NCBI GenBank assembly: GCA_022711595.1
Contig: JAKLET010000028.1
Coordinates: 1-50,380, forward strand
Direction: 5' to 3'
Length of the DNA stretch: 50,380 bases
DNA from: Deltaproteobacteria bacterium
GTDB taxonomy: Bacteria > Desulfobacterota > Syntrophorhabdia > Syntrophorhabdales > Syntrophorhabdaceae
Positions 19,845-50,250 of this stretch are shown one piece after another. A program made the position numbers and the translations under genes. Position 1 is the first letter of the stretch; every line of letters begins with the position of its first letter. The notes beneath the pieces were generated by a model. That model saw only the letters and a program-made list of their open reading frames with translations. It did no database searches and was not told the origin of the DNA.

Positions 19845-19966
19845 GGTCATGGGTAATTGGTCATGGGTCATAGGGAGCAACGGGCCATTGGTCATAGATG
19901 ATAGGTAGTAGGAAAAAGAGGACGAATTTTCTTTCCCATCACCTATAACCCATCACCTATAACCTG
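19845..19966. repeat. Intergenic heptamer array with inverted halves, copy A
   Basis: The left half is a run of 7-nt units of the type GGTCATG/GGTAATT/GGTCATA (19845-19872 and again 19883-19912). The right half (19935-19966), read on the opposite strand, is AGGTTAT/AGGTGAT/GGGTTAT/AGGTGAT, also 7-nt units. Period 7 with a polarity switch. It lies between the divergent T6SS and kinase promoters. The same arrangement recurs at 26070-26180. Confidence 0.8.
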
Positions 19967-19976
19967 TCTTTCTTTA

Positions 19977-19992
19977 TGGCACCATATTTGCT
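19977..19992 (+). promoter_or_regulatory. Sigma-54 (-24/-12) promoter for the kinase-regulator pair
   Basis: TGGCACCATATTTGCT: GG at 19978-19979 and GC at 19990-19991, exactly 10 nt between, with both TGGCAC and TTGCT boxes perfect. The predicted start is near 20003, only 4 nt before the first ATG at 20007. Confidence 0.75.
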
Positions 19993-20006
19993 ATCCTTAA
20001 TTAAAC

Positions 20007-21509
20007 ATGGCAAGGACGCAATCAGAAAAGAGCTCTTTCACGCTCAGATCGGTGATGAACATCCTGTGCGGGGGGGTGTTTCTCATCGGCAGCGACCTGA
20101 AGATCGAGCAGGTGGGCTCTGTTTCGCAGCGCTGGTCCGGGGGCAGGGACGCGGCAGCTCTCCAGGGAAAGCATTGCTACTCGGCCATCATGAAAAAAAA
20201 GCGGCCCTGCGCGAGGTGTCCTGTTCTGAGATCTTACGAAAGCGGCAGGACGGAGCAGCTGGAAATAAAGGTTGAGAAAAAAGAAGGGGGAGCGGAGTAC
20301 CATGTCCTGACGGCAACGCCCCTGAAATCGAGTGAAGGGCGCGAAGTTCACGGGGTCATCGAGATCATCAGGGACGTGACGGACTTCAGAAAGACCGAGG
20401 AGGACTTAAGGCGCCTCAACGAGTTCAATTATGAGATCATAGAGAACGCCCCCGTGGCGATCTTTACCATTAATAAAAGCGGTGAATTTTCAAGCGTCAA
20501 TCCGGTGCTGGCGACCCTGTCGGGTTTCGACTCCATAGCAAAGGCCAAAGAGAAGCTCCTCGGATTCAACTGGATAAAGAACCCCTACACCGTGAAATGC
20601 GGAATGGCAAATTACATCAAGGAAGGGCTCAAGGGCAAACCCTTCCAGCTCTGGGACTTTCCCTTTATCAATTACTGGGGGGACCCGCAGTACATTTACT
20701 TCAAGGGCGTGCCGATCAAGGGGAAGGACGGCAGGATCGAAGGACTGCTGTGCATCATCGAGGAAACGACGGAGATAGTCAAGACCCGCGCCCAGTTGAT
20801 GCAGGAGGCCAAGATGTCCATGATAGGCAGGCTTACGACGGGGATCGCCCACGAACTCAACAATCCCCTCGCGACCATTACCGCAAATACCGAGCTGGCT
20901 CTGGAGTCCCTGGAGAACCTTGGCGACGGGAAGCTCGGCGGCAGGGACCTCGAGGAGTTCAAGGAGGGTCTCAAGGTAATAGAGGAGCAGGCCTTCCGGT
21001 GCACGAAGACGATCAAGAACCTCCTCGATATGACGAGGAAAAAGGACCTGGGGAAGATAAGTATTGACCTCAACCAGCTTCTTGATGAGCTTCTGGACCA
21101 TATCAATTTCCGGAAACTGCCAGTGAGGTTCATCCAGGACGTGCCGTTGAAGCTTCCGCCTGTCAAGGGCGATTCCGACGCGATGCGGCAGGTTTTCCTC
21201 AACGTCATAAGCAATGCCGTCGACGCCGTTGAGAACCAGGCCGACGCCACGATATGGATAACCGCAAAGAAGCTCCACGGCAACACCCTTGAGGTCACCG
21301 TGGAGGACAACGGCCCCGGCATTCCGGACAATATGAAGGATCTCATATTCGAACCTTTTTTCACGACAAAAGGCATAAAGAAGGGGACGGGGCTCGGTCT
21401 GACCCTGTGTTATGACTTTTTGCAGAGGATGGGGGGAAGCATAGATGTCCAGCACCGCCTGGCGGGAGGGAGCATTTTCAGGATATCCCTGCCGCTGTAC
21501 GTCAGATAG
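20007..21509 (+). CDS. PAS-domain sensor histidine kinase 1
   Basis: A 500-residue soluble kinase with no membrane segment. PAS1 (about residues 15-115) contains a PCARCPV motif with Cys68 and Cys71, a pair often seen in redox or metal-sensing PAS domains. PAS2 (about 130-265) is closely related to the third PAS of the kinase at 35628. The H-box is IAHELNNPLATI (His near 282), followed by N, G1 and G2 boxes (DNGPGIP, GTGLGLTL). It is co-transcribed with the NtrC-type regulator 23 nt downstream. The sigma-54 site leaves almost no leader for the ATG at 20007; ATG at 20055 or GTG at 20052 are alternatives. Confidence 0.93.
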   Translation: MARTQSEKSSFTLRSVMNILCGGVFLIGSDLKIEQVGSVSQRWSGGRDAAALQGKHCYSAIMKKKRPCARCPVLRSYESGRTEQLEIKVEKKEGGAEYHVLTATPLKSSEGREVHGVIEIIRDVTDFRKTEEDLRRLNEFNYEIIENAPVAIFTINKSGEFSSVNPVLATLSGFDSIAKAKEKLLGFNWIKNPYTVKCGMANYIKEGLKGKPFQLWDFPFINYWGDPQYIYFKGVPIKGKDGRIEGLLCIIEETTEIVKTRAQLMQEAKMSMIGRLTTGIAHELNNPLATITANTELALESLENLGDGKLGGRDLEEFKEGLKVIEEQAFRCTKTIKNLLDMTRKKDLGKISIDLNQLLDELLDHINFRKLPVRFIQDVPLKLPPVKGDSDAMRQVFLNVISNAVDAVENQADATIWITAKKLHGNTLEVTVEDNGPGIPDNMKDLIFEPFFTTKGIKKGTGLGLTLCYDFLQRMGGSIDVQHRLAGGSIFRISLPLYVR

Positions 21510-21532
21510 ACATTACCCGAGGAGGCGCTTTA

Positions 21533-22879
21533 GTGGTCAGTGTATTGATAGTCGATGATGAGCAGCAACTCGCGGAGGCCTTCAGGAAAAAGCTCTCCCG
21601 GGAGGGTTTCTCCGTTACCGTCGCTTTCACCGCCCACGAGGCTATATCGGTGATGAAAAAGCAGACATTCGATGTCTGCGTCCTCGATATCAGGCTCCCC
21701 GACATGGACGGAGTGGAGCTCCTTGAGACCCTGAAGAAGAACGAACCGAACCTCGAATTCATCATGCTCACCGGCCACGCCTCCGTCGACACTGCCATCC
21801 AGTCCATGAAGCTCGGCGCGTATGACTACCTGAGCAAGCCCTGCAAACTCTCCGAATTGAGCACCGTGATCCAGAAGGCCTACGAGAAGAAATCGTTGAA
21901 GGAAAGGAACATCGTGCTTCAGCAGCAGCTCCAGAGGGTCGAATCGCACGACACATTCATCGGGGTCAGCGAACCGATGAAGGAGGTGAAGAGGCTCATA
22001 AGTCTTGTGGCCCCCTCCGATGTCCCTGTCCTGGTGCTGGGTGAAACCGGGACCGGCAAGGAACTGGTCGCAAGGGCGATACACACCCTCAGCCCGCGGT
22101 CTACGAACCAGTTCGTCGCGGTCAATTCGAGCACATTCCAGGAAAGCATCCTCGAAAGCGAGCTTTTCGGTTACAAAAAGGGTGCCTTTACCGGCGCCCA
22201 GACGGACAAGATCGGCTTGCTCGAACTGGCCAACAAAGGCACCTTTTTCATCGATGAAGTGGGGGATATGGGCATGGCCATCCAGGCAAAGTTCCTGCGG
22301 ACCCTCGAAACGGGCATCTTCAGGCGTCTTGGCGATACCCGCGAAACAAAGGTGGACGTCAGGTTCATCTTTGCCACGAACAAGTCCCTCGAAGGCGAAG
22401 TGAAGGAAAAGCGCTTCCGTAAAGACCTTTTTTTCAGGCTCAATACATTCATAATAAACCTTTCCCCTCTGCGGGAGCGAAGGGACGACATCCCCCTGCT
22501 TGCCGAATATTTCCTGAACAAATTTGTCAGGGGAGGGGAAAAGAAGGCCCTCTCGAAGGACGCCATGCAGCTCCTCCTGGACTACAGGTGGCCCGGCAAC
22601 GTACGCGAGCTTGCAAACGTTATCGAACGCGCCGTCCTCCTTTCGGCCGCGCGCCGGGAGATAATGGCGGACGACCTGCCACGCAGCATGATGGAAGACC
22701 ACGGCGCCGGAAAGGGCGCGGAAAGAAAAGGGGCCGCGGGGGAAGAACTGAACCTTGAAAAGGTGCAGCAGCAGCACATCGAGCACGTCCTGACCCTGGC
22801 GAAGGGCAACAAGAGCAAGGCGGCCCGCCTGCTGGGCATCAGCCGCAGGAAGCTCTACCTCAAAACGCAGGAGAAATAA
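21533..22879 (+). CDS. NtrC-family sigma-54 response regulator 1
   Basis: A 448-residue regulator: receiver domain (phospho-Asp near 52 in VLDIRLPDMDG, K in LSKPC), sigma-54 AAA+ domain (Walker A GETGTGKE near 170, GAFTGA loop that contacts sigma-54) and a C-terminal Fis-type HTH (NKSKAARLLGISRRKLY). The start is GTG at 21533 with GAGGAGG upstream. The partner kinase is upstream. It likely activates the -24/-12 promoters of this locus, including its own operon and dctP. A regulator of the same type lies at 34266-35621. Confidence 0.95.
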   Translation: MVSVLIVDDEQQLAEAFRKKLSREGFSVTVAFTAHEAISVMKKQTFDVCVLDIRLPDMDGVELLETLKKNEPNLEFIMLTGHASVDTAIQSMKLGAYDYLSKPCKLSELSTVIQKAYEKKSLKERNIVLQQQLQRVESHDTFIGVSEPMKEVKRLISLVAPSDVPVLVLGETGTGKELVARAIHTLSPRSTNQFVAVNSSTFQESILESELFGYKKGAFTGAQTDKIGLLELANKGTFFIDEVGDMGMAIQAKFLRTLETGIFRRLGDTRETKVDVRFIFATNKSLEGEVKEKRFRKDLFFRLNTFIINLSPLRERRDDIPLLAEYFLNKFVRGGEKKALSKDAMQLLLDYRWPGNVRELANVIERAVLLSAARREIMADDLPRSMMEDHGAGKGAERKGAAGEELNLEKVQQQHIEHVLTLAKGNKSKAARLLGISRRKLYLKTQEK

Positions 22880-22882
22880 AAG

Positions 22883-22957
22883 ACAGTTCCATGTTCCACG
22901 GAACCTTTACAACAACATTTTGTATATTTGAACCTGGAACGTGGAACATGGAACTGT
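22883..22957. promoter_or_regulatory. Perfect 18-bp inverted repeat, candidate enhancer for dctP
   Basis: ACAGTTCCATGTTCCACG (22883-22900) and its exact reverse complement (22940-22957) are separated by 39 nt. The centre lies about 160 nt upstream of the predicted dctP start, a normal distance for NtrC-type activator sites. The repeat is also made of 7-nt units (GGAACGT/GGAACAT/GGAACTG), so it may instead be a member of the intergenic heptamer-array class or a loop in the regulator mRNA. Confidence 0.5.
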
Positions 22958-23054
22958 TTAAAAGATATACACCCCTGTATCAATTATGCACAGCGGTTCC
23001 GGAGTGGAAGTCGTCGAACCCTTTTATTACGGCTGTTTACCTTTGCCGTAGCGA

Positions 23055-23070
23055 TGGCATCGAATTTGCT
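23055..23070 (+). promoter_or_regulatory. Sigma-54 promoter for the TRAP transporter operon
   Basis: TGGCATCGAATTTGCT: GG at 23056-23057 and GC at 23068-23069 with 10 nt between. Predicted start near 23081, 31 nt before dctP. A 6-bp inverted repeat TACGGC/GCCGTA (23028-23050) abuts the -24 box. Confidence 0.7.
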
Positions 23071-23111
23071 TTTGATTTATAACGACAAAATCAAAACCAA
23101 GGGGGTAATTT

Positions 23112-24137
23112 ATGAAGCGGTCTTTCTGTATCATGTCCTTTTTACTCGTTTTTATGTTCACTGTTTGTTTTGTTTCCTCGCAGGCGATCGCCCAGGACAA
23201 GGTGGTAAAGCTTCGTTTCTCAACCTTTTTCCCGGTGAGCCACCCCAACGCGGCAATTACAGCGGAGTGGTGCAAGGAAGTTGAGAAGAGGACCAACGGC
23301 AAGGTGAAGATACAGCACTATCCGGGTGCAACGCTCACCTCTCCTCAGACGACCTATGACAGCATCCTCTCCGGCGTGGTCGATATCGGCAACTGTGTTC
23401 TCGGATACACCATGGGGAAATTCCCCCTCTCCGAGATCCTCGACTACCCGCTGGGCTATCCGAGCGGTGTCGTCGCCACGCGTCTCGGGAATGAATTCTA
23501 TAACCATTTCAAACCCAAAGAGTTCGATGATGTGAAGGTCATGTATTTCCATGCCCAGGGCCCGGGCATACTCCACACGAGAAAGCCCGTGAAGAACCTC
23601 GAGGACCTAAAGGGAATGAAGATCAGGACATTCGGTTCCAACGCGAAGATGATGTCCATGCTGGGCGGCTCGCCGGTGGCCATGCCCATGGGAGACGCCT
23701 ATGACGCCCTGTCGAAGGGTGTCGCCGACGGCCTTCTGTGCGGGTACGAGGCACTCAAGGGCTGGAAACTGGGTGAGGTCATCAAGTCCACCACCGAGAA
23801 TTACGGCACCGCCTACACCGCGACCTTTGTCATCGCCATGAACAAGGCGAAATGGAACAGCATTCCCCCCGATGCCCAGAAGATCATTGAGACCATCAAC
23901 AAGGAATTTATAGAAAAACAGGGCAAGCTCTGGGACAAGATGGACCAGGATGGTAAGGATTTTTCCACCAAGAGGGGAAACCAGGTAGTAAAGCTTTCCG
24001 CGGAAGAGAACCAGAAATGGATCGCCAAGTCTCAGCCGCTCTACGATGAATACGTGAAAAAGATGAAGGAAAAGGGCCTTCCCGGCGACAAGGCTCTCAA
24101 ATTTGTTCGCGACTATCTGAAAAAGAATACAAAATAA
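23112..24137 (+). CDS. dctP: TRAP transporter substrate-binding protein (DctP family)
   Basis: A 341-residue periplasmic binding protein with a signal peptide (KRSFCIMSFLLVFMFTV..., cleavage probably after AIA near residue 27). Family patterns include KLRFSTFFPVSHPNA, GKVKIQHYPGATL and DLKGMKIRTFGSNAKMMSMLGGSPVAMPMGDAYDALSKGVADG. The Arg in KIRTFGS is the conserved carboxylate-binding residue, so an organic acid is the likely ligand. The ribosome site is AAGGGGG. The gene is first in the dctP-dctQ-dctM operon and is followed by a strong hairpin. Confidence 0.94.
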   Translation: MKRSFCIMSFLLVFMFTVCFVSSQAIAQDKVVKLRFSTFFPVSHPNAAITAEWCKEVEKRTNGKVKIQHYPGATLTSPQTTYDSILSGVVDIGNCVLGYTMGKFPLSEILDYPLGYPSGVVATRLGNEFYNHFKPKEFDDVKVMYFHAQGPGILHTRKPVKNLEDLKGMKIRTFGSNAKMMSMLGGSPVAMPMGDAYDALSKGVADGLLCGYEALKGWKLGEVIKSTTENYGTAYTATFVIAMNKAKWNSIPPDAQKIIETINKEFIEKQGKLWDKMDQDGKDFSTKRGNQVVKLSAEENQKWIAKSQPLYDEYVKKMKEKGLPGDKALKFVRDYLKKNTK

Positions 24138-24151
24138 CCCCCATACGGCAT

Positions 24152-24185
24152 TGCTGCCGGGGATGGTAAAAAATCCCCGGCAGCA
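24152..24185 (+). terminator. Strong intra-operon hairpin between dctP and dctQ
   Basis: Perfect 13-bp inverted repeat TGCTGCCGGGGAT (24152-24164) / ATCCCCGGCAGCA (24173-24185) with an 8-nt loop and no T tract. In the mRNA it would stabilise the dctP end or reduce read-through, giving more binding protein than membrane subunits. Confidence 0.65.
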
Positions 24186-24206
24186 TAAGCAAAAGGAGGA
24201 TCACCA

Positions 24207-24695
24207 ATGAACGGCCTGATCGGTGCCTTCAAGAAGCTTAGCGGTTGGATGAACTCACTGAGCGGCATCGTACTTTTCCTCATGATGATGCTGACCGTTG
24301 TGGATGTGGCGCTCAGGGTTTTCTGGAGGCCCATCACCGGGACATACGAACTGGTGGCCATGGCAGGCGCGGTTGTAGTGGCTTTTGCCATACCCCAGAC
24401 ATCCTGGGACAACGCCCACATCTTTGTCGATTTTTTGCTGGAGAATCGTTCACGGGCCGTGAAAACGGCCTTCGGCTGCTTTACAAAACTTCTGGGCATT
24501 ATCCTGTTCGGGATGCTGGGCTGGTATCTTCTCATGAAGGCGAACCATCTCTTTAAAAGCGGTGACGTTTCTCTCACGCTCCAGATCCCCTACTATCCAG
24601 TAGCCTATGGACTGGCATTCTGTGCCTTTATAGAGGCCCTTGTCCTTGTCCTGCATATCGCGGCGCTATTCAAGAGTGGTGAAAACAATGGATGA
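24207..24695 (+). CDS. dctQ: TRAP transporter small membrane subunit (DctQ family)
   Basis: A 162-residue membrane protein with four predicted helices (about 20-40, 50-70, 90-110, 130-150), including the family pattern GTYELVAMAGAVVVAFAIPQTSWDNAHIFVDFLL. It has an AAGGAGG ribosome site. Its end overlaps the start of dctM by 8 nt. It scaffolds the large DctM subunit. Confidence 0.93.
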   Translation: MNGLIGAFKKLSGWMNSLSGIVLFLMMMLTVVDVALRVFWRPITGTYELVAMAGAVVVAFAIPQTSWDNAHIFVDFLLENRSRAVKTAFGCFTKLLGIILFGMLGWYLLMKANHLFKSGDVSLTLQIPYYPVAYGLAFCAFIEALVLVLHIAALFKSGENNG

Positions 24696-25989
24696 AATTA
24701 CCATAGGAATCATCTCCGTTTTTATTTTAATGGCACTTTTCCTGACCGGTATCGAACTGGCTTTTGCCATGGCCCTTATCGGTGTGGCTGGCTATGCGTA
24801 CATAGTGGGCCCGGAGCAGGCAATGAGCATGCTGGCAAACGACTTTTACGATTCCCTGGAATCATACAGCCTTACGGTGGTGCCCCTCTTTGTGCTCATG
24901 GGTCAGATCGCCTTCAACGCCGGCATTGCCAAGCGCCTCTATGACAGTGCCCACAAATTCCTGGGCCACATTCCCGGCGGGCTTGCAATGGCGACCGTTG
25001 CCGGGGCGACGATATTCAAGGCCATATGCGGATCTATCGTCGCTACAAGCGCCACCTTTGCCAGCGTTGCCGTGCCGGAGATGGACCGCTACAATTACAG
25101 CAAGAAGCTCTCCACGGGTGTCGTCGCCACCGTCGGGACCCTGGGCGTGCTCATTCCGCCGAGCGTCACCCTGATCCTCCTTGGCCTCATTACCCAGCAG
25201 TCCATAGGAAAGCTCTTTCTTGCGGGCATCATCCCCGGTCTTATGATCGCCTTTTTCTTTGCCTTCGTCATCTTCGGGTGGGCCCGTATAAACCCGAAGA
25301 TAGGGCCGAAGAGCGAGAAGTACTCATGGCCGGTCCGGGTGAAGACCCTTCCCGACGTCATGTGGCCGATATTGATATTCTTTGTCATAATCGGCGGATT
25401 GATGTACGGTTTCTTCACGCCTACCGAGGCGGGGAGTATAGGCACCTTCGCCGTTCTGGTCCTCTGTGTCTTGAAAGGCGATATCAAGTTCAACGGTATC
25501 AGGCAGTCCATCAAGGAGGCCCTCAGGACCGCCTGCATGGTGCTGGTGATCGTGGCCGCCTCCACCGTGCTGGGCCATTTCATTGCAGTGACCAACATTC
25601 CCAACGCGGTGGCGGAATGGGTCGTTACCCTGCCGCTGCACCGTCATATCATTATGATCGTCATATTTCTCATTTACCTGGTGGGCGGTTCTTTCATTGA
25701 TGACCTTGCGTTCATGATCCTTGCCACACCCATATTTTACCCGGCCATCGTCAATATGGGCTATGATCCGATCTGGGCGTGCATCATGATCTCGCTGACC
25801 GTCTGCGTGGGGTCCGTCATCCCCCCCGTCGCCATGTGTGTCTTCGTGGTAAAGAACATTACCAAGGTGCCCATGAGCATCATCTACAAGGGGGTTTATC
25901 CTTTCCTCATCTCCCTGATCCTGTGCGTGGCGCTTCTTTTCGTCTTTCCGCAGCTTACCCTGTATCTCCCATCGGTTTTAATGAAATAG
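24688..25989 (+). CDS. dctM: TRAP transporter large membrane subunit (DctM family)
   Basis: A 433-residue DctM. I set the start at MDEITIG (24688) because a longer reading would run back inside dctQ without family similarity. The usual features are present: FLTGIELAFAMALIGVAGYAYI, LTVVPLFVLMGQIAFNAGI, ATVAGATIFKAICGSIVATSATFASVAVPEM, and TVGTLGVLIPPSVTLILLGLITQQSIGKLF. It has about 12 membrane segments and carries out sodium-driven uptake of the DctP-bound solute. A GC-rich hairpin follows. Confidence 0.95.
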   Translation: MDEITIGIISVFILMALFLTGIELAFAMALIGVAGYAYIVGPEQAMSMLANDFYDSLESYSLTVVPLFVLMGQIAFNAGIAKRLYDSAHKFLGHIPGGLAMATVAGATIFKAICGSIVATSATFASVAVPEMDRYNYSKKLSTGVVATVGTLGVLIPPSVTLILLGLITQQSIGKLFLAGIIPGLMIAFFFAFVIFGWARINPKIGPKSEKYSWPVRVKTLPDVMWPILIFFVIIGGLMYGFFTPTEAGSIGTFAVLVLCVLKGDIKFNGIRQSIKEALRTACMVLVIVAASTVLGHFIAVTNIPNAVAEWVVTLPLHRHIIMIVIFLIYLVGGSFIDDLAFMILATPIFYPAIVNMGYDPIWACIMISLTVCVGSVIPPVAMCVFVVKNITKVPMSIIYKGVYPFLISLILCVALLFVFPQLTLYLPSVLMK

Positions 25990-26020
25990 GCCGTTCGCAT
26001 CAATGATGCTCCTCTTAGAG

Positions 26021-26053
26021 ATGGGGCCGGAATAATACCCGTTCCGGCCCCGT
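26021..26053 (+). terminator. GC-rich hairpin after dctM
   Basis: GGGGCCGGAA (26023-26032) and TTCCGGCCCC (26042-26051) are perfectly complementary with a 9-nt loop; two more pairs extend the stem. There is no T tract, but position right after dctM suits a transcription end. Confidence 0.6.
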
Positions 26054-26069
26054 ACCCCCAGAGAAAACA

Positions 26070-26180
26070 GGTCATTGGTAATTGGTCATGGGTAATGGGA
26101 AAAAACCAGTACCCCATTCTTTACCTCATCCTCACAGTTCCTGTTTTTCCCATCACCTATAACCTGTGACCCATAACCTG
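26070..26180. repeat. Intergenic heptamer array with inverted halves, copy B
   Basis: Left half 26070-26097: GGTCATT, GGTAATT, GGTCATG, GGTAATG in exact 7-nt period. Right half 26149-26180 read on the opposite strand: AGGTTAT, GGGTCAC, AGGTTAT, AGGTGAT. Same unit types and same arrangement as copy A at 19845-19966, with an unrelated 50-nt centre. It occupies much of the 383-nt gene-free stretch 25990-26372, which otherwise holds the dctM hairpin, a small inverted repeat CCTGT/ACAGG (26210-26230) and the ligase promoter. Confidence 0.8.
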
Positions 26181-26300: not shown

Positions 26301-26317
26301 TTGGCACGCGAATTGCT
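26301..26317 (+). promoter_or_regulatory. Sigma-54 promoter for CoA ligase 1
   Basis: TTGGCACGCGAATTGCT is essentially the perfect -24/-12 consensus: GG at 26303-26304, GC at 26315-26316, 10 nt between. Predicted start near 26328, 45 nt before the ligase ATG. Confidence 0.85.
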
Positions 26318-34181: not shown

Positions 34182-34186
34182 AAGAC

Positions 34187-34264
34187 GGTTTATCCTGTTT
34201 GTTTAGTTTCTTTGGTTTCAATAACCGGACAAACTGAAGAAACCGGACAAACTGTATAAACGTT
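34187..34264. repeat. Nonamer array with polarity switch between convergent genes
   Basis: Continuous 9-nt units: GGTTTATCC, TGTTTGTTT, AGTTTCTTT, GGTTTCAAT, then AACCGGACA, AACTGAAGA, AACCGGACA, AACTGTATA, AACG. The first four carry GTTT and the rest carry its complement, so the halves can fold into a long imperfect hairpin rich in wobble pairs. It fills the whole gap between the convergent acyl-CoA dehydrogenase 2 and regulator 2 and could end transcription from both sides. Confidence 0.75.
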
Positions 34265-34265
34265 A

Positions 34266-49252: not shown

Positions 49253-49440
49253 CAGACGGTTTTTTGGTTTGTTCAGTTTCTTTGGTTTATACGGTTATAA
49301 GGAGCGCCTCCTTCTTTTTTTAACGCTTCACAAGCTTTCAAACGTTCCACAAACTTTCAAACGCCCCATAAACGGTTAAACTATCTTTATATCGCTTCAC
49401 AAACCTCAAACGCTTCACAAACTTTCAAACTGTTTTTTAT
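49253..49440. repeat. Intergenic short-period repeat element, copy 1 (upstream of the TA pair)
   Basis: Left part: GTTT-bearing 9-nt units (GGTTTGTTC, AGTTTCTTT, GGTTTATAC, GGTTATAAG). Centre: the AAGGAG/CTCCTT hairpin and T tract. Right part: AAAC-bearing units spaced alternately 11 and 8 nt (period 19, AAACTTTC and AACGTTCCAC types). The order matches the element after the TA pair (50092-50204), with shared stretches such as CTTCTTTTTTAACG. No gene is present in the gap 49246-49484. Confidence 0.7.
49299..49321 (+). terminator. Intrinsic terminator of the Hdr/Etf operon
   Basis: AAGGAG (49299-49304), 3-nt loop, CTCCTT (49308-49313), then C and seven T residues. The stem is only 6 bp but the T tract and position 53 nt after the last gene fit an intrinsic terminator. 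Confidence 0.6.
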
Positions 49441-50091: not shown

Positions 50092-50204
50092 ACAGTTTTT
50101 TGGTTTCTTCTGTTTTTATGGTTTGTATGGTTTATAAAGATTTCCTTCTTTTTTAACGTTTCATAAACTTTCAAACGCCTCATAAACTGTCAAACTGTCT
50201 TTAT
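50092..50204. repeat. Intergenic short-period repeat element, copy 2 (downstream of the TA pair)
   Basis: Related to 49253-49440: GTTT-bearing 9-nt units (GGTTTCTTC, TGTTTTTAT, GGTTTGTAT), a weak hairpin with CTTCTTTTTT, then AAAC units spaced 11 and 8 nt. Same order and orientation as copy 1, so the TA pair lies between direct copies. Confidence 0.65.
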
Positions 50205-50205
50205 G

Positions 50206-50250
50206 GGTTTATACGGTTTGTTCGGTTTCTATGGTTTCTATGGTTTATTA
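50206..50250. repeat. Five tandem 9-nt units before the IS element
   Basis: GGTTTATAC, GGTTTGTTC, GGTTTCTAT, GGTTTCTAT, GGTTTATTA in exact 9-nt period. It is the same unit type as the left halves of the elements at 34187, 49253 and 50092. Confidence 0.8.

What the first reader, a model, noticed from the sequence alone, without database searches (positions are those of the whole stretch)
19845..26180. Heptamer arrays with inverted halves at two intergenic sites
19845-19966 and 26070-26180 share GGTCATG/GGTAATT-type units in exact 7-nt period on one side and the inverse-strand AGGTTAT/AGGTGAT units on the other, with unrelated centres. They recall short tandem repeats of cyanobacteria but have a fixed polarity switch. 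They may be slippage products, nucleoid or mRNA 3' end elements, or a small mobile family.
Basis: seen in the sequence. Interest (0 to 1): 0.55.

Follow-up and report, generated by a model that had tools for sequence, protein, structure and literature searches.

The report
Four-unit inverted repeats at gene ends
The two repeat clusters belong to a large set of hairpin-forming elements, each arm built of about four short degenerate repeats, that often sit just behind stop codons in this bacterial genus; they probably shape the ends of messages, and the genus builds the same structure from several different repeat words.

Summary
Both sites carry four GGTNATN heptamers, an unrelated centre and four more on the opposite strand, both arms pointing inward. 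The genome holds 395 two-unit matches (reversed control: 1). Inward array pairs outnumber outward 50 to 2. Of 142 arrays examined, 83 have four units and 6 more. Neighbouring units are no more alike than chance, so slippage is unlikely. Of 86 arrays facing a gene end, 63 lie within -15 to +13 nt of the stop codon; the window's two copies are not among these. By named relatives the genus is Syntrophorhabdus. The kind is known: Rehm et al. 2015 described G-rich heptamers in Xanthomonas and Nostoc with four units, inverted pairs and stop-codon proximity, and pointed to G-quadruplexes. New here: the same architecture in other 7-9 nt 'dialects', some without regular G-tracts, replacing one another at orthologous sites; paired arms that match less than chance at variable positions; and, in silico, repeated arms whose base re-forms when a ribosome masks the first unit. 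Best reading: bidirectional 3'-end hairpins, probably terminators tolerant of a terminating ribosome. Function is untested.

The parts
19845..19872 (+). Site 1 left arm: four GGTNATN units (GGTCATG GGTAATT GGTCATG GGTCATA)
19873..19936 (.). Site 1 centre: decayed further units (GGGCCATTGGTCATAGATGATAGGTAGTAGG), then A-rich and T-rich sequence ending TTTCC
19937..19964 (-). Site 1 right arm: four units read on the - strand (GGTTATA GGTGATG GGTTATA GGTGATG), followed by TGTCTTTCTTT
26070..26097 (+). Site 2 left arm: four units (GGTCATT GGTAATT GGTCATG GGTAATG), preceded by AGAAAACA, followed by GGAAAAAA
26098..26150 (.). Site 2 centre, unlike that of site 1, ending TTTTTCC
26151..26178 (-). Site 2 right arm: four units on the - strand, one imperfect (GGTCACA), followed by TGTTTTATT
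22886..22954 (.). Another dialect, same architecture: GTTCCAN units inverted, beginning 6 nt after the stop codon that ends at 22879 (TAA-AAGACA-GTTCCAT...)
34182..34265 (.). Another dialect: GTTTNTNNN 9-mers inverted, filling the space between two convergent genes
19977..19992 (+). Sigma-54-like promoter TGGCACCATATTTGCT just outside site 1 (consensus recalled); close variants stand at the same place in four relatives (G011, G008, G006, G005)
26302..26317 (+). Sigma-54-like promoter TGGCACGCGAATTGCT downstream of site 2 (consensus recalled)

Best explanation
They are bidirectional gene-end hairpin elements. Each is two inward-facing arms of about four short degenerate units, closed at the base by AAAGACA/TGTCTTT, so that a transcript from either strand folds into a long imperfect stem followed by U-rich sequence. 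[quoted passage not shown] Proposed reason for the repeats (inference): a ribosome on the stop codon covers the first unit of the 5' arm and would block a normal terminator, but a repetitive arm can slide by one unit, so that the last unit of the 3' arm, next to the U-rich edge, still pairs. Shown: architecture, position, polarity, predicted folding, the sliding property in silico. Inferred: termination, protection, selection for sliding. Not explained: how a unit word spreads through a genome.
For: Position: of 141 arrays with an outer neighbour gene, 86 face a gene end, 63 of these at -15 to +13 nt from the stop codon; in 17 the gene runs into the array and its stop is made by the units (TGA of GGTGAT, TAA of GGTAAT, or TAG). 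In the window plus 20 host stretches picked by position, 12 of 26 convergent, 16 of 135 tandem and 3 of 32 divergent intergenic regions of 30-800 nt hold an array of any dialect (4.09, 0.76, 0.47 per kb). Folding: 47 inward pairs have mean z -6.0 (composition-shuffled controls, + strand) and median energies of -41 and -44 kcal/mol on the two strands; inverted arms make this expected, so it is no independent proof. The A-rich base is nearly the same on arms facing stops (67) and starts (43), so it belongs to the element and reads as a T-rich tail behind the stem. Sliding: with the flank and first 7 nt of the 5' arm masked, the outermost 3' unit stays paired at 0.61 against 0.13 in controls with the same pairs but no repetition (real higher in 40 of 51); unmasked 0.79 against 0.81. 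A normal terminator 5 bp behind a stop codon fell from about 90% to under 10% because of the ribosome (PMC4824070, section read). Other dialects follow the same layout. Arms persist at six compared orthologous sites while centres do not.
Against: No RNA data were available. 11 of 72 clusters lie between divergent genes, where a terminator has no obvious use, and site 1 of the window is one of them; site 2 lies 80 nt behind its stop codon, after a conserved C+G-rich hairpin that may already terminate. The T-rich tail is interrupted by GTC. Stems of 28-36 nt are long for intrinsic terminators (recalled). In Nostocales the same unit occurs in much longer arrays, so the four-unit limit is not universal. 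After 14 nt of masking the sliding advantage is smaller (0.42 against 0.17, real higher in 32 of 51). Low-copy genus members have few arrays of any dialect that my search could see (2 arrays each in the G009 and G003 samples), so the device is dispensable.
Confidence: 0.45

Rival explanations
1. Translational brake like stop-proximal REPs: a stable stem immediately behind the stop codon stalls the last ribosome, leads to mRNA cleavage and lowers output of the upstream gene.
For: 63 of 86 stop-facing arrays lie -15 to +13 nt from the stop. [quoted passage not shown]
Against: Does not explain arms at divergent and far sites, nor the symmetrical T-rich edges, nor the unit structure.
Confidence: 0.2
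2. G-quadruplex elements: four G-tracts per arm fold into G4 in DNA or RNA (the reading pointed to for the Xanthomonas and Nostoc repeats).
For: A four-unit GGTNATR array with its trailing GG has five GG or GGG tracts; four units are the mode. Rehm et al. report G4 formation by CD for their repeat oligonucleotides (PMC4692102, abstract and discussion).
Against: A similar roughly four-unit inverted architecture and stop-codon position is kept by dialects without regular G-tracts (GTTCCAN, GTTTGAAN, GTTTNTNNN, GCTTGAANN), so four G-tracts cannot be the common reason. G4 for GGTNATN itself is not excluded.
Confidence: 0.1
3. Non-autonomous mobile elements (MITE or REPIN-like) moved by an unknown enzyme, with preference for gene ends.
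For: Recurrent borders, inverted arms, 72 clusters in the sampled part of one genome, patchy copy number within the genus (15 to 395 matches). Four-unit arrays sharing a string exceed expectation (5 duplicates against 0.5).
Against: 78 of 83 four-unit strings are distinct. Of the 9 arrays that share one, 6 are local duplicates and the other three lie in a longer dispersed repeat. REP-type transposase count does not follow array count (6 copies in G009 with 18 matches; 0 in G002 and G007 with 229 and 307). No PF00078 reverse transcriptase in the host genome. I saw no target duplication in the printed flanks, but did not test for it systematically.
Confidence: 0.12
4. Binding sites for a DNA- or RNA-binding protein that reads four 7-nt modules, such as a nucleoid or architectural protein; sequence, not structure, is conserved.
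For: Positions 1, 2, 3, 5, 6 are the same in 494-510 of 511 units while positions 4 and 7 vary; in two orthologous arm pairs 40 of 40 fixed positions agree but 2 of 8 and 1 of 8 variable ones. Both figures are raised by the detection rule (at most one mismatch per unit, two perfect neighbours). Partner arms match less than shuffled partners at the variable positions, unlike a pure hairpin.
Against: Would need a separate reader for each dialect; strong gene-end placement.
Confidence: 0.1
5. Neutral slippage products.
For: A few arrays are expanded (10 and 21 units, the latter mostly GGTGATG), and long arrays are common in Nostocales.
Against: Adjacent units agree at position 4 in 0.30 against 0.27 expected and at position 7 in 0.46 against 0.43; 83 of 142 arrays have exactly four units; inverted partner arms; one unit shared across the genome.
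Confidence: 0.03

Closest known systems
G-rich heptamer repeats GGGAATC / GGGANTN of Xanthomonas and GGGGA(C/T)T of Nostoc (Rehm et al. 2015, PMC4692102; abstract and sections 10, 13, 14, 16 read)
   Same: Seven-nt units with fixed and free positions, majority of four units, convergently oriented pairs (70 in Xcc, 75 in Xac), mostly intergenic, often within 0-50 bp of stop codons on the coding strand including overlaps, under-represented between divergent genes, conserved place but variable length and sequence
   Different: Unit here is GGTNATN; several dialects of 7, 8 and 9 nt, some without regular G-tracts, share the design; under-matching of partner arms and the sliding-stem property were not in the sections read
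TAACTGA heptamer repeats of Beggiatoaceae, cyanobacteria and Bacteroidetes (PMC4679880, abstract and outline seen)
   Same: Heptamer arrays, intergenic, spread over distant phyla
   Different: Those are direct repeats (169 sets and one indirect repeat in one genome), mostly just upstream of start codons
REP / BIME / REPIN elements
   Same: Extragenic palindromes in many copies, often close to stop codons (PMC12306157, passages)
   Different: No GTAG- or CGTC-type tag in the border logos, tandem unit structure, no link to the REP transposase family
Cyanobacterial STRR heptamers (recalled; only search listings seen)
   Same: Short tandem heptamers in cyanobacteria
   Different: Not compared in sequence here

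Membership tests
Rehm-type G-rich heptamer repeats | Tandem 7-nt units with conserved and variable positions, mode of four units | tested here: met
   83 of 142 arrays have four units; positions 1,2,3,5,6 agree in 494-510 of 511 units, a figure raised by the detection rule
Rehm-type G-rich heptamer repeats | Inverted pairs in convergent orientation | tested here: met
   50 inward against 2 outward
Rehm-type G-rich heptamer repeats | Intergenic, on the coding strand just behind stop codons, rare between divergent genes | tested here: met
   63 of 86 stop-facing arrays at -15 to +13 nt; 11 of 72 clusters divergent, 1 in a gene
Rehm-type G-rich heptamer repeats | G-quadruplex formation | not testable with these tools
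   GG or GGG tracts present in GGTNATR; no CD data; no regular G-tracts in several sibling dialects
REP / BIME | Short palindrome with a conserved tetranucleotide tag (GTAG or CGTC) | tested here: not met
   Outer consensus is AAAGAAGACA, inner GGAAAA; no such tag in either logo
REP / BIME | Association with a REP-type Y1 transposase | tested here: not met
   PF01797 copies do not follow array number over the 12 genus genomes
Intrinsic terminator | Stable stem directly followed by a U-rich tract | tested here: inconclusive
   Stem strong (mean z -6.0, 47 pairs); T-rich tail present but interrupted by GTC
Intrinsic terminator | Transcripts end there | not testable with these tools
   no transcript data
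MITE | Copies related by descent, terminal inverted repeats, target duplication, empty sites | tested here: inconclusive
   Inverted ends yes; 9 of 83 four-unit arrays share a string, 6 of them local duplicates; some orthologous sites hold other dialects or nothing, and no clean borders were seen
Rfam families | Match at gathering score | tested here: not met
   0 matches in the window

The most novel reading that the evidence does not exclude
Short tandem units in inverted arms are a general, sequence-interchangeable solution to ending a message right behind a stop codon: a 'sliding stem' whose repeated arms re-register around a terminating ribosome. Different words for the same device arise and replace one another at the same gene ends, and selection keeps the partner arms mismatched so that the DNA is not a perfect palindrome. 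The Xanthomonas, Nostoc and Syntrophorhabdus heptamers would then be one functional class whose point is not the G-quadruplex.
Probability: 0.22. Interest if true: 0.75.

Novelty: new variant of a known kind. Interest (0 to 1): 0.55.

Why it matters
Heptamer repeats have been reported in several bacterial groups without a known function, and a leading idea ties their four-unit size to G-quadruplexes. Finding a similar four-unit inverted design in words without regular G-tracts, at the same gene ends, separates architecture from sequence and offers a testable reason for the repetition. It also makes the question approachable: a reporter with repetitive and non-repetitive stems of equal energy, 5 nt behind a stop codon, would decide it.

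Tried and rejected
Slippage: rejected for most arrays on the lack of neighbour likeness and the scarcity of arrays above four units. Perfect hairpin kept by compensating changes: rejected; partner arms match less, not more, than shuffled partners at positions 4 and 7. Strand-specific G-U wobble selection: in the host, wobble in the two directions is about equal, so no sign of it. REP transposase and reverse transcriptase as makers: no link; a telomere-like templated addition at breaks, which the polarity first suggested to me, has no such enzyme in the host. Known RNA family: none in the window at gathering score. Mobile copies: the only dispersed copies with identical variable letters (L049, L095, L102) are embedded in a longer repeat. 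Searching papers for five unit strings gave no paper, and for Syntrophorhabdus repeats two papers on anaerobic digestion.

Against my reading and kept: divergent placements; the two atypical window copies; long arrays in Nostocales; the interrupted T-tail; and uneven under-matching by species (host and G011: position 7 only; G010: position 4 only; the combined test is significant for both). In G010 the one-unit-shifted register also shows low matching at position 4 (0.152 against 0.258, 3.4% of shuffles), so the register control is clean in the host but not in G010.

Limits of the samples: the 58 host stretches besides the window were chosen because they hold arrays (the first 100 listed of 395 places of one pattern, then the 89 places of a pattern ending in GGRA), so the inner GGAAAA border is partly ascertained; polarity and unit number are not set by that choice, beyond at least two units. 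Two- and three-unit arrays may be decayed four-unit ones. G010 and G011 stretches were chosen mostly for having both arms. The period search needs about three units to score, so its unit counts are bounded below. Gene calls are from my own codon-usage script, so start codons are approximate. The window, part of the 450 kb sample, was itself chosen for this finding.
Full report
What is there. The genome holds 201 + 194 exact two-unit matches, against 0 + 1 for the pattern read backwards. I examined 59 host stretches around matches, the window included, and found 142 arrays of at least two perfect units. Units per array: 31 with two, 22 with three, 83 with four, 4 with five, 1 with ten, 1 with twenty-one. 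Positions 1, 2, 3, 5 and 6 of the unit agree in 494-510 of 511 units, a figure raised by the detection rule (at most one mismatch per unit); position 4 is any base (C 144, A 71, T 136, G 160) and position 7 is G 253, A 214, T 40, C 4. Adjacent units agree no more than expected (0.30 against 0.27; 0.46 against 0.43). Array pairs under 400 nt apart: +- 50, ++ 13, -- 5, -+ 2. The outer border reads AAAGAAGACA and the inner one GGAAAA (the latter partly ascertained); the outer border is nearly the same on 67 arms facing a gene end and 43 facing a gene start, so it is part of the element.

Where it sits. With my own gene calls, 72 clusters fall as 36 tandem, 23 convergent, 11 divergent, 1 in-gene, 1 undefined. 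Of 141 arrays with an outer neighbour gene, 86 face its end and 55 its start. Of the 86, 63 lie between -15 and +13 nt from the stop codon; in 17 the gene runs into the array and ends on a TGA, TAA or TAG made by the units, as in GGTGAT or GGTAAT. The window's own two copies are atypical: site 1 lies between divergent genes next to a sigma-54-like promoter, and site 2 lies 80 nt behind a stop codon, after another conserved hairpin.

Other words, same design. A period search in 450 kb of the host (the window and 20 stretches of 20 kb picked by position) found 51 arrays of period 6-10 in intergenic DNA against 0.8 after shuffling. Besides GGTNATN they include GTTCCAN and CGTAARG (7 nt), GTTTGAAN (8 nt), and GCTTGAANN, GTTTCAAYN and GTTTNTNNN (9 nt). 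Two of these dialects lie in the window itself, at 22886-22954 and 34182-34265. For nine dialect patterns in that sample, 66 of 68 hits are intergenic, neighbouring hits are +- 14, -+ 1, ++ 1, and 22 of 42 stop-facing hits lie -5 to +15 nt from the stop. Arrays outside GGTNATN in G000, G006 and G002 also centre on four units: 11 of 21 with period 7, 6 of 6 with period 8, 17 of 42 with period 9 (9 have three and 11 five); the search scores only arrays of about three units or more. In the host sample arrays are present in 12 of 26 convergent, 16 of 135 tandem and 3 of 32 divergent regions of 30-800 nt. In smaller samples of relatives: G006 2 of 4, 9 of 35, 1 of 8; G002 2 of 4, 6 of 31, 0 of 4; G011 2 of 9, 1 of 26, 1 of 12; G003 1 of 5, 0 of 23, 1 of 5; G008 0 of 1, 3 of 17, 0 of 2; G009 0 of 6, 0 of 23, 0 of 5.

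Turnover. Syntenic stretches from six genus members show that at site 1 G011 (78% gene identity) has a single four-unit GGTNATN array at the same point, while G006 and G005 have inverted arrays of other words there and G008 none that I could see; at site 2 other words are found in G005, G006 and G008, weak heptamers in G009, and none in G011 (read by eye). Behind the gene ending at 22879 the host has GTTCCAN, G006 GCTTGAANN, G008 GYAAACA units, G005 and G010 another, longer repeat, G011 only weak traces and G009 none; the ordinary hairpin at 24138-24205 is kept in all six. Of 14 further orthologous gaps printed, six have GGTNATN arrays in both the host and G010 or G011, with arms at the gene ends (not always complete) and centres that cannot be aligned; at one the host has arrays and G006 none. 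These come largely from samples chosen for arrays, so they do not measure a rate. In two orthologous arm pairs the fixed positions agree in 40 of 40, position 4 in 2 of 8 and position 7 in 1 of 8, with the same caveat on detection.

Partner arms avoid matching. Aligned from the inner end, partner arms agree less at the variable positions than arms dealt to other partners of the same species. Over 86 pairs from three species: position 4, 0.216 against 0.281 (0.6% of 5000 shuffles as low); position 7, 0.344 against 0.438 (0.1%). Shifting the register by one unit removes the effect in the host; in G010 one shifted register is also low at position 4. By species the effect is uneven: position 7 in the host and G011, position 4 in G010. 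A simple reading is that a perfect palindrome is selected against, as long palindromes are unstable (established knowledge; not tested).

How it may work. RNA folding gives mean z -6.0 over 47 pairs and median -41 and -44 kcal/mol on the two strands, as inverted arms must. A T-rich edge follows the stem on either strand. [quoted passage not shown] I asked whether repetition helps. With the flank and the first 7 nt of the 5' arm held unpaired, the outermost unit of the 3' arm is paired with probability 0.61, against 0.13 for control stems with the same base pairs in permuted order; real is higher in 40 of 51. With 14 nt masked it is 0.42 against 0.17 (32 of 51); unmasked 0.79 against 0.81 (26 of 51). 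So the repetitive arms can slide. That this is why they exist is inference. A translational effect like that of stop-proximal REPs is the closest rival (PMC12306157, passages).

Distribution and identity. A scan of named genome contigs for a four-unit array with an inner GGAAA gave 92 stretches, of which the table showed 80: Syntrophorhabdus and other Desulfobacterota, cyanobacteria (mostly Nostocales), Thermodesulfovibrionia, Omnitrophica, and a few Bacteroidota and candidate phyla. Among 98 relatives, the 11 genus members have 15 to 372 matches; other genera have mostly fewer than 15, with exceptions in three members of one genus of the family (59, 89, 87) and two of another family (59, 152). 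In four Nostocales genomes the three-unit pattern has 220 to 997 matches per genome, with reversed controls of 6 to 152, and many arrays far longer than four units.

What is known. Rehm et al. 2015 (PMC4692102; abstract, sections 10, 13, 14, 16) describe G-rich heptamers in Xanthomonas and Nostoc with majority four units, 70 and 75 convergent inverted pairs in two Xanthomonas species, closeness to stop codons on the coding strand, 83% kept in the same gene context between these species, and no known function; they point to G-quadruplexes. The present elements are of that kind. The dialects without regular G-tracts argue that four G-tracts are not the common reason. I found no mention of the dialect set, the mismatch rule or the sliding idea in eight searches, which cover open-licence papers only and of which I saw listings, reading parts of four papers.

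Makers. No enzyme could be tied to them: PF01797 does not follow copy number over the 12 genus genomes, and PF00078 has no match in 11 of the 12, the host included. How a unit word spreads through a genome while positions 4 and 7 stay free remains unexplained.

Noticed in passing
L041:1711-1857 (G000:C4, 47710-47856): One right arm has grown to 21 units, mostly GGTGATG: a true slippage expansion, in contrast to the rest.
   Followed up: no
L090:1727-2011 (G000:C29): Four four-unit arrays with flank at 46-nt spacing, two and two with identical letters: local duplication of a whole arm module.
   Followed up: partly
L049, L095, L102 (G000:C9, C34, C55): A compact element with identical left-arm letters lies inside a longer dispersed repeat (about 180-366 nt shared, 80-90% identity), pieces of which recur in L077 and L078; that repeat is unidentified.
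   Followed up: partly
L045:1634-1727 (G000:C7): Outward-facing arms (- then +) of GGTNATT units, one of two exceptions to the polarity rule in the host sample.
   Followed up: no
window 49258-49373 and 50095-50248: Further period-9 and period-19 repeats (GGTTTATAC, CACAAACTTTCAAACGCCC) near the right end, similar to each other and to parts of L102.
   Followed up: no
window 24138-24205: A C+G-rich hairpin directly behind a stop codon stands at the same spot in all six relatives compared, in contrast to the fast-changing repeat sites.
   Followed up: partly
G011 (L063, L166-L187): Position 4 of the unit is rarely C in this species (11 of 164 units), whereas C is common in the host and G010: the free position has species-specific preferences.
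   Followed up: no
L038:4138-4253, and centres in L083, L071, L103: Centres of some GGTNATN elements hold units of another dialect, as if one element had been placed inside another.
   Followed up: partly
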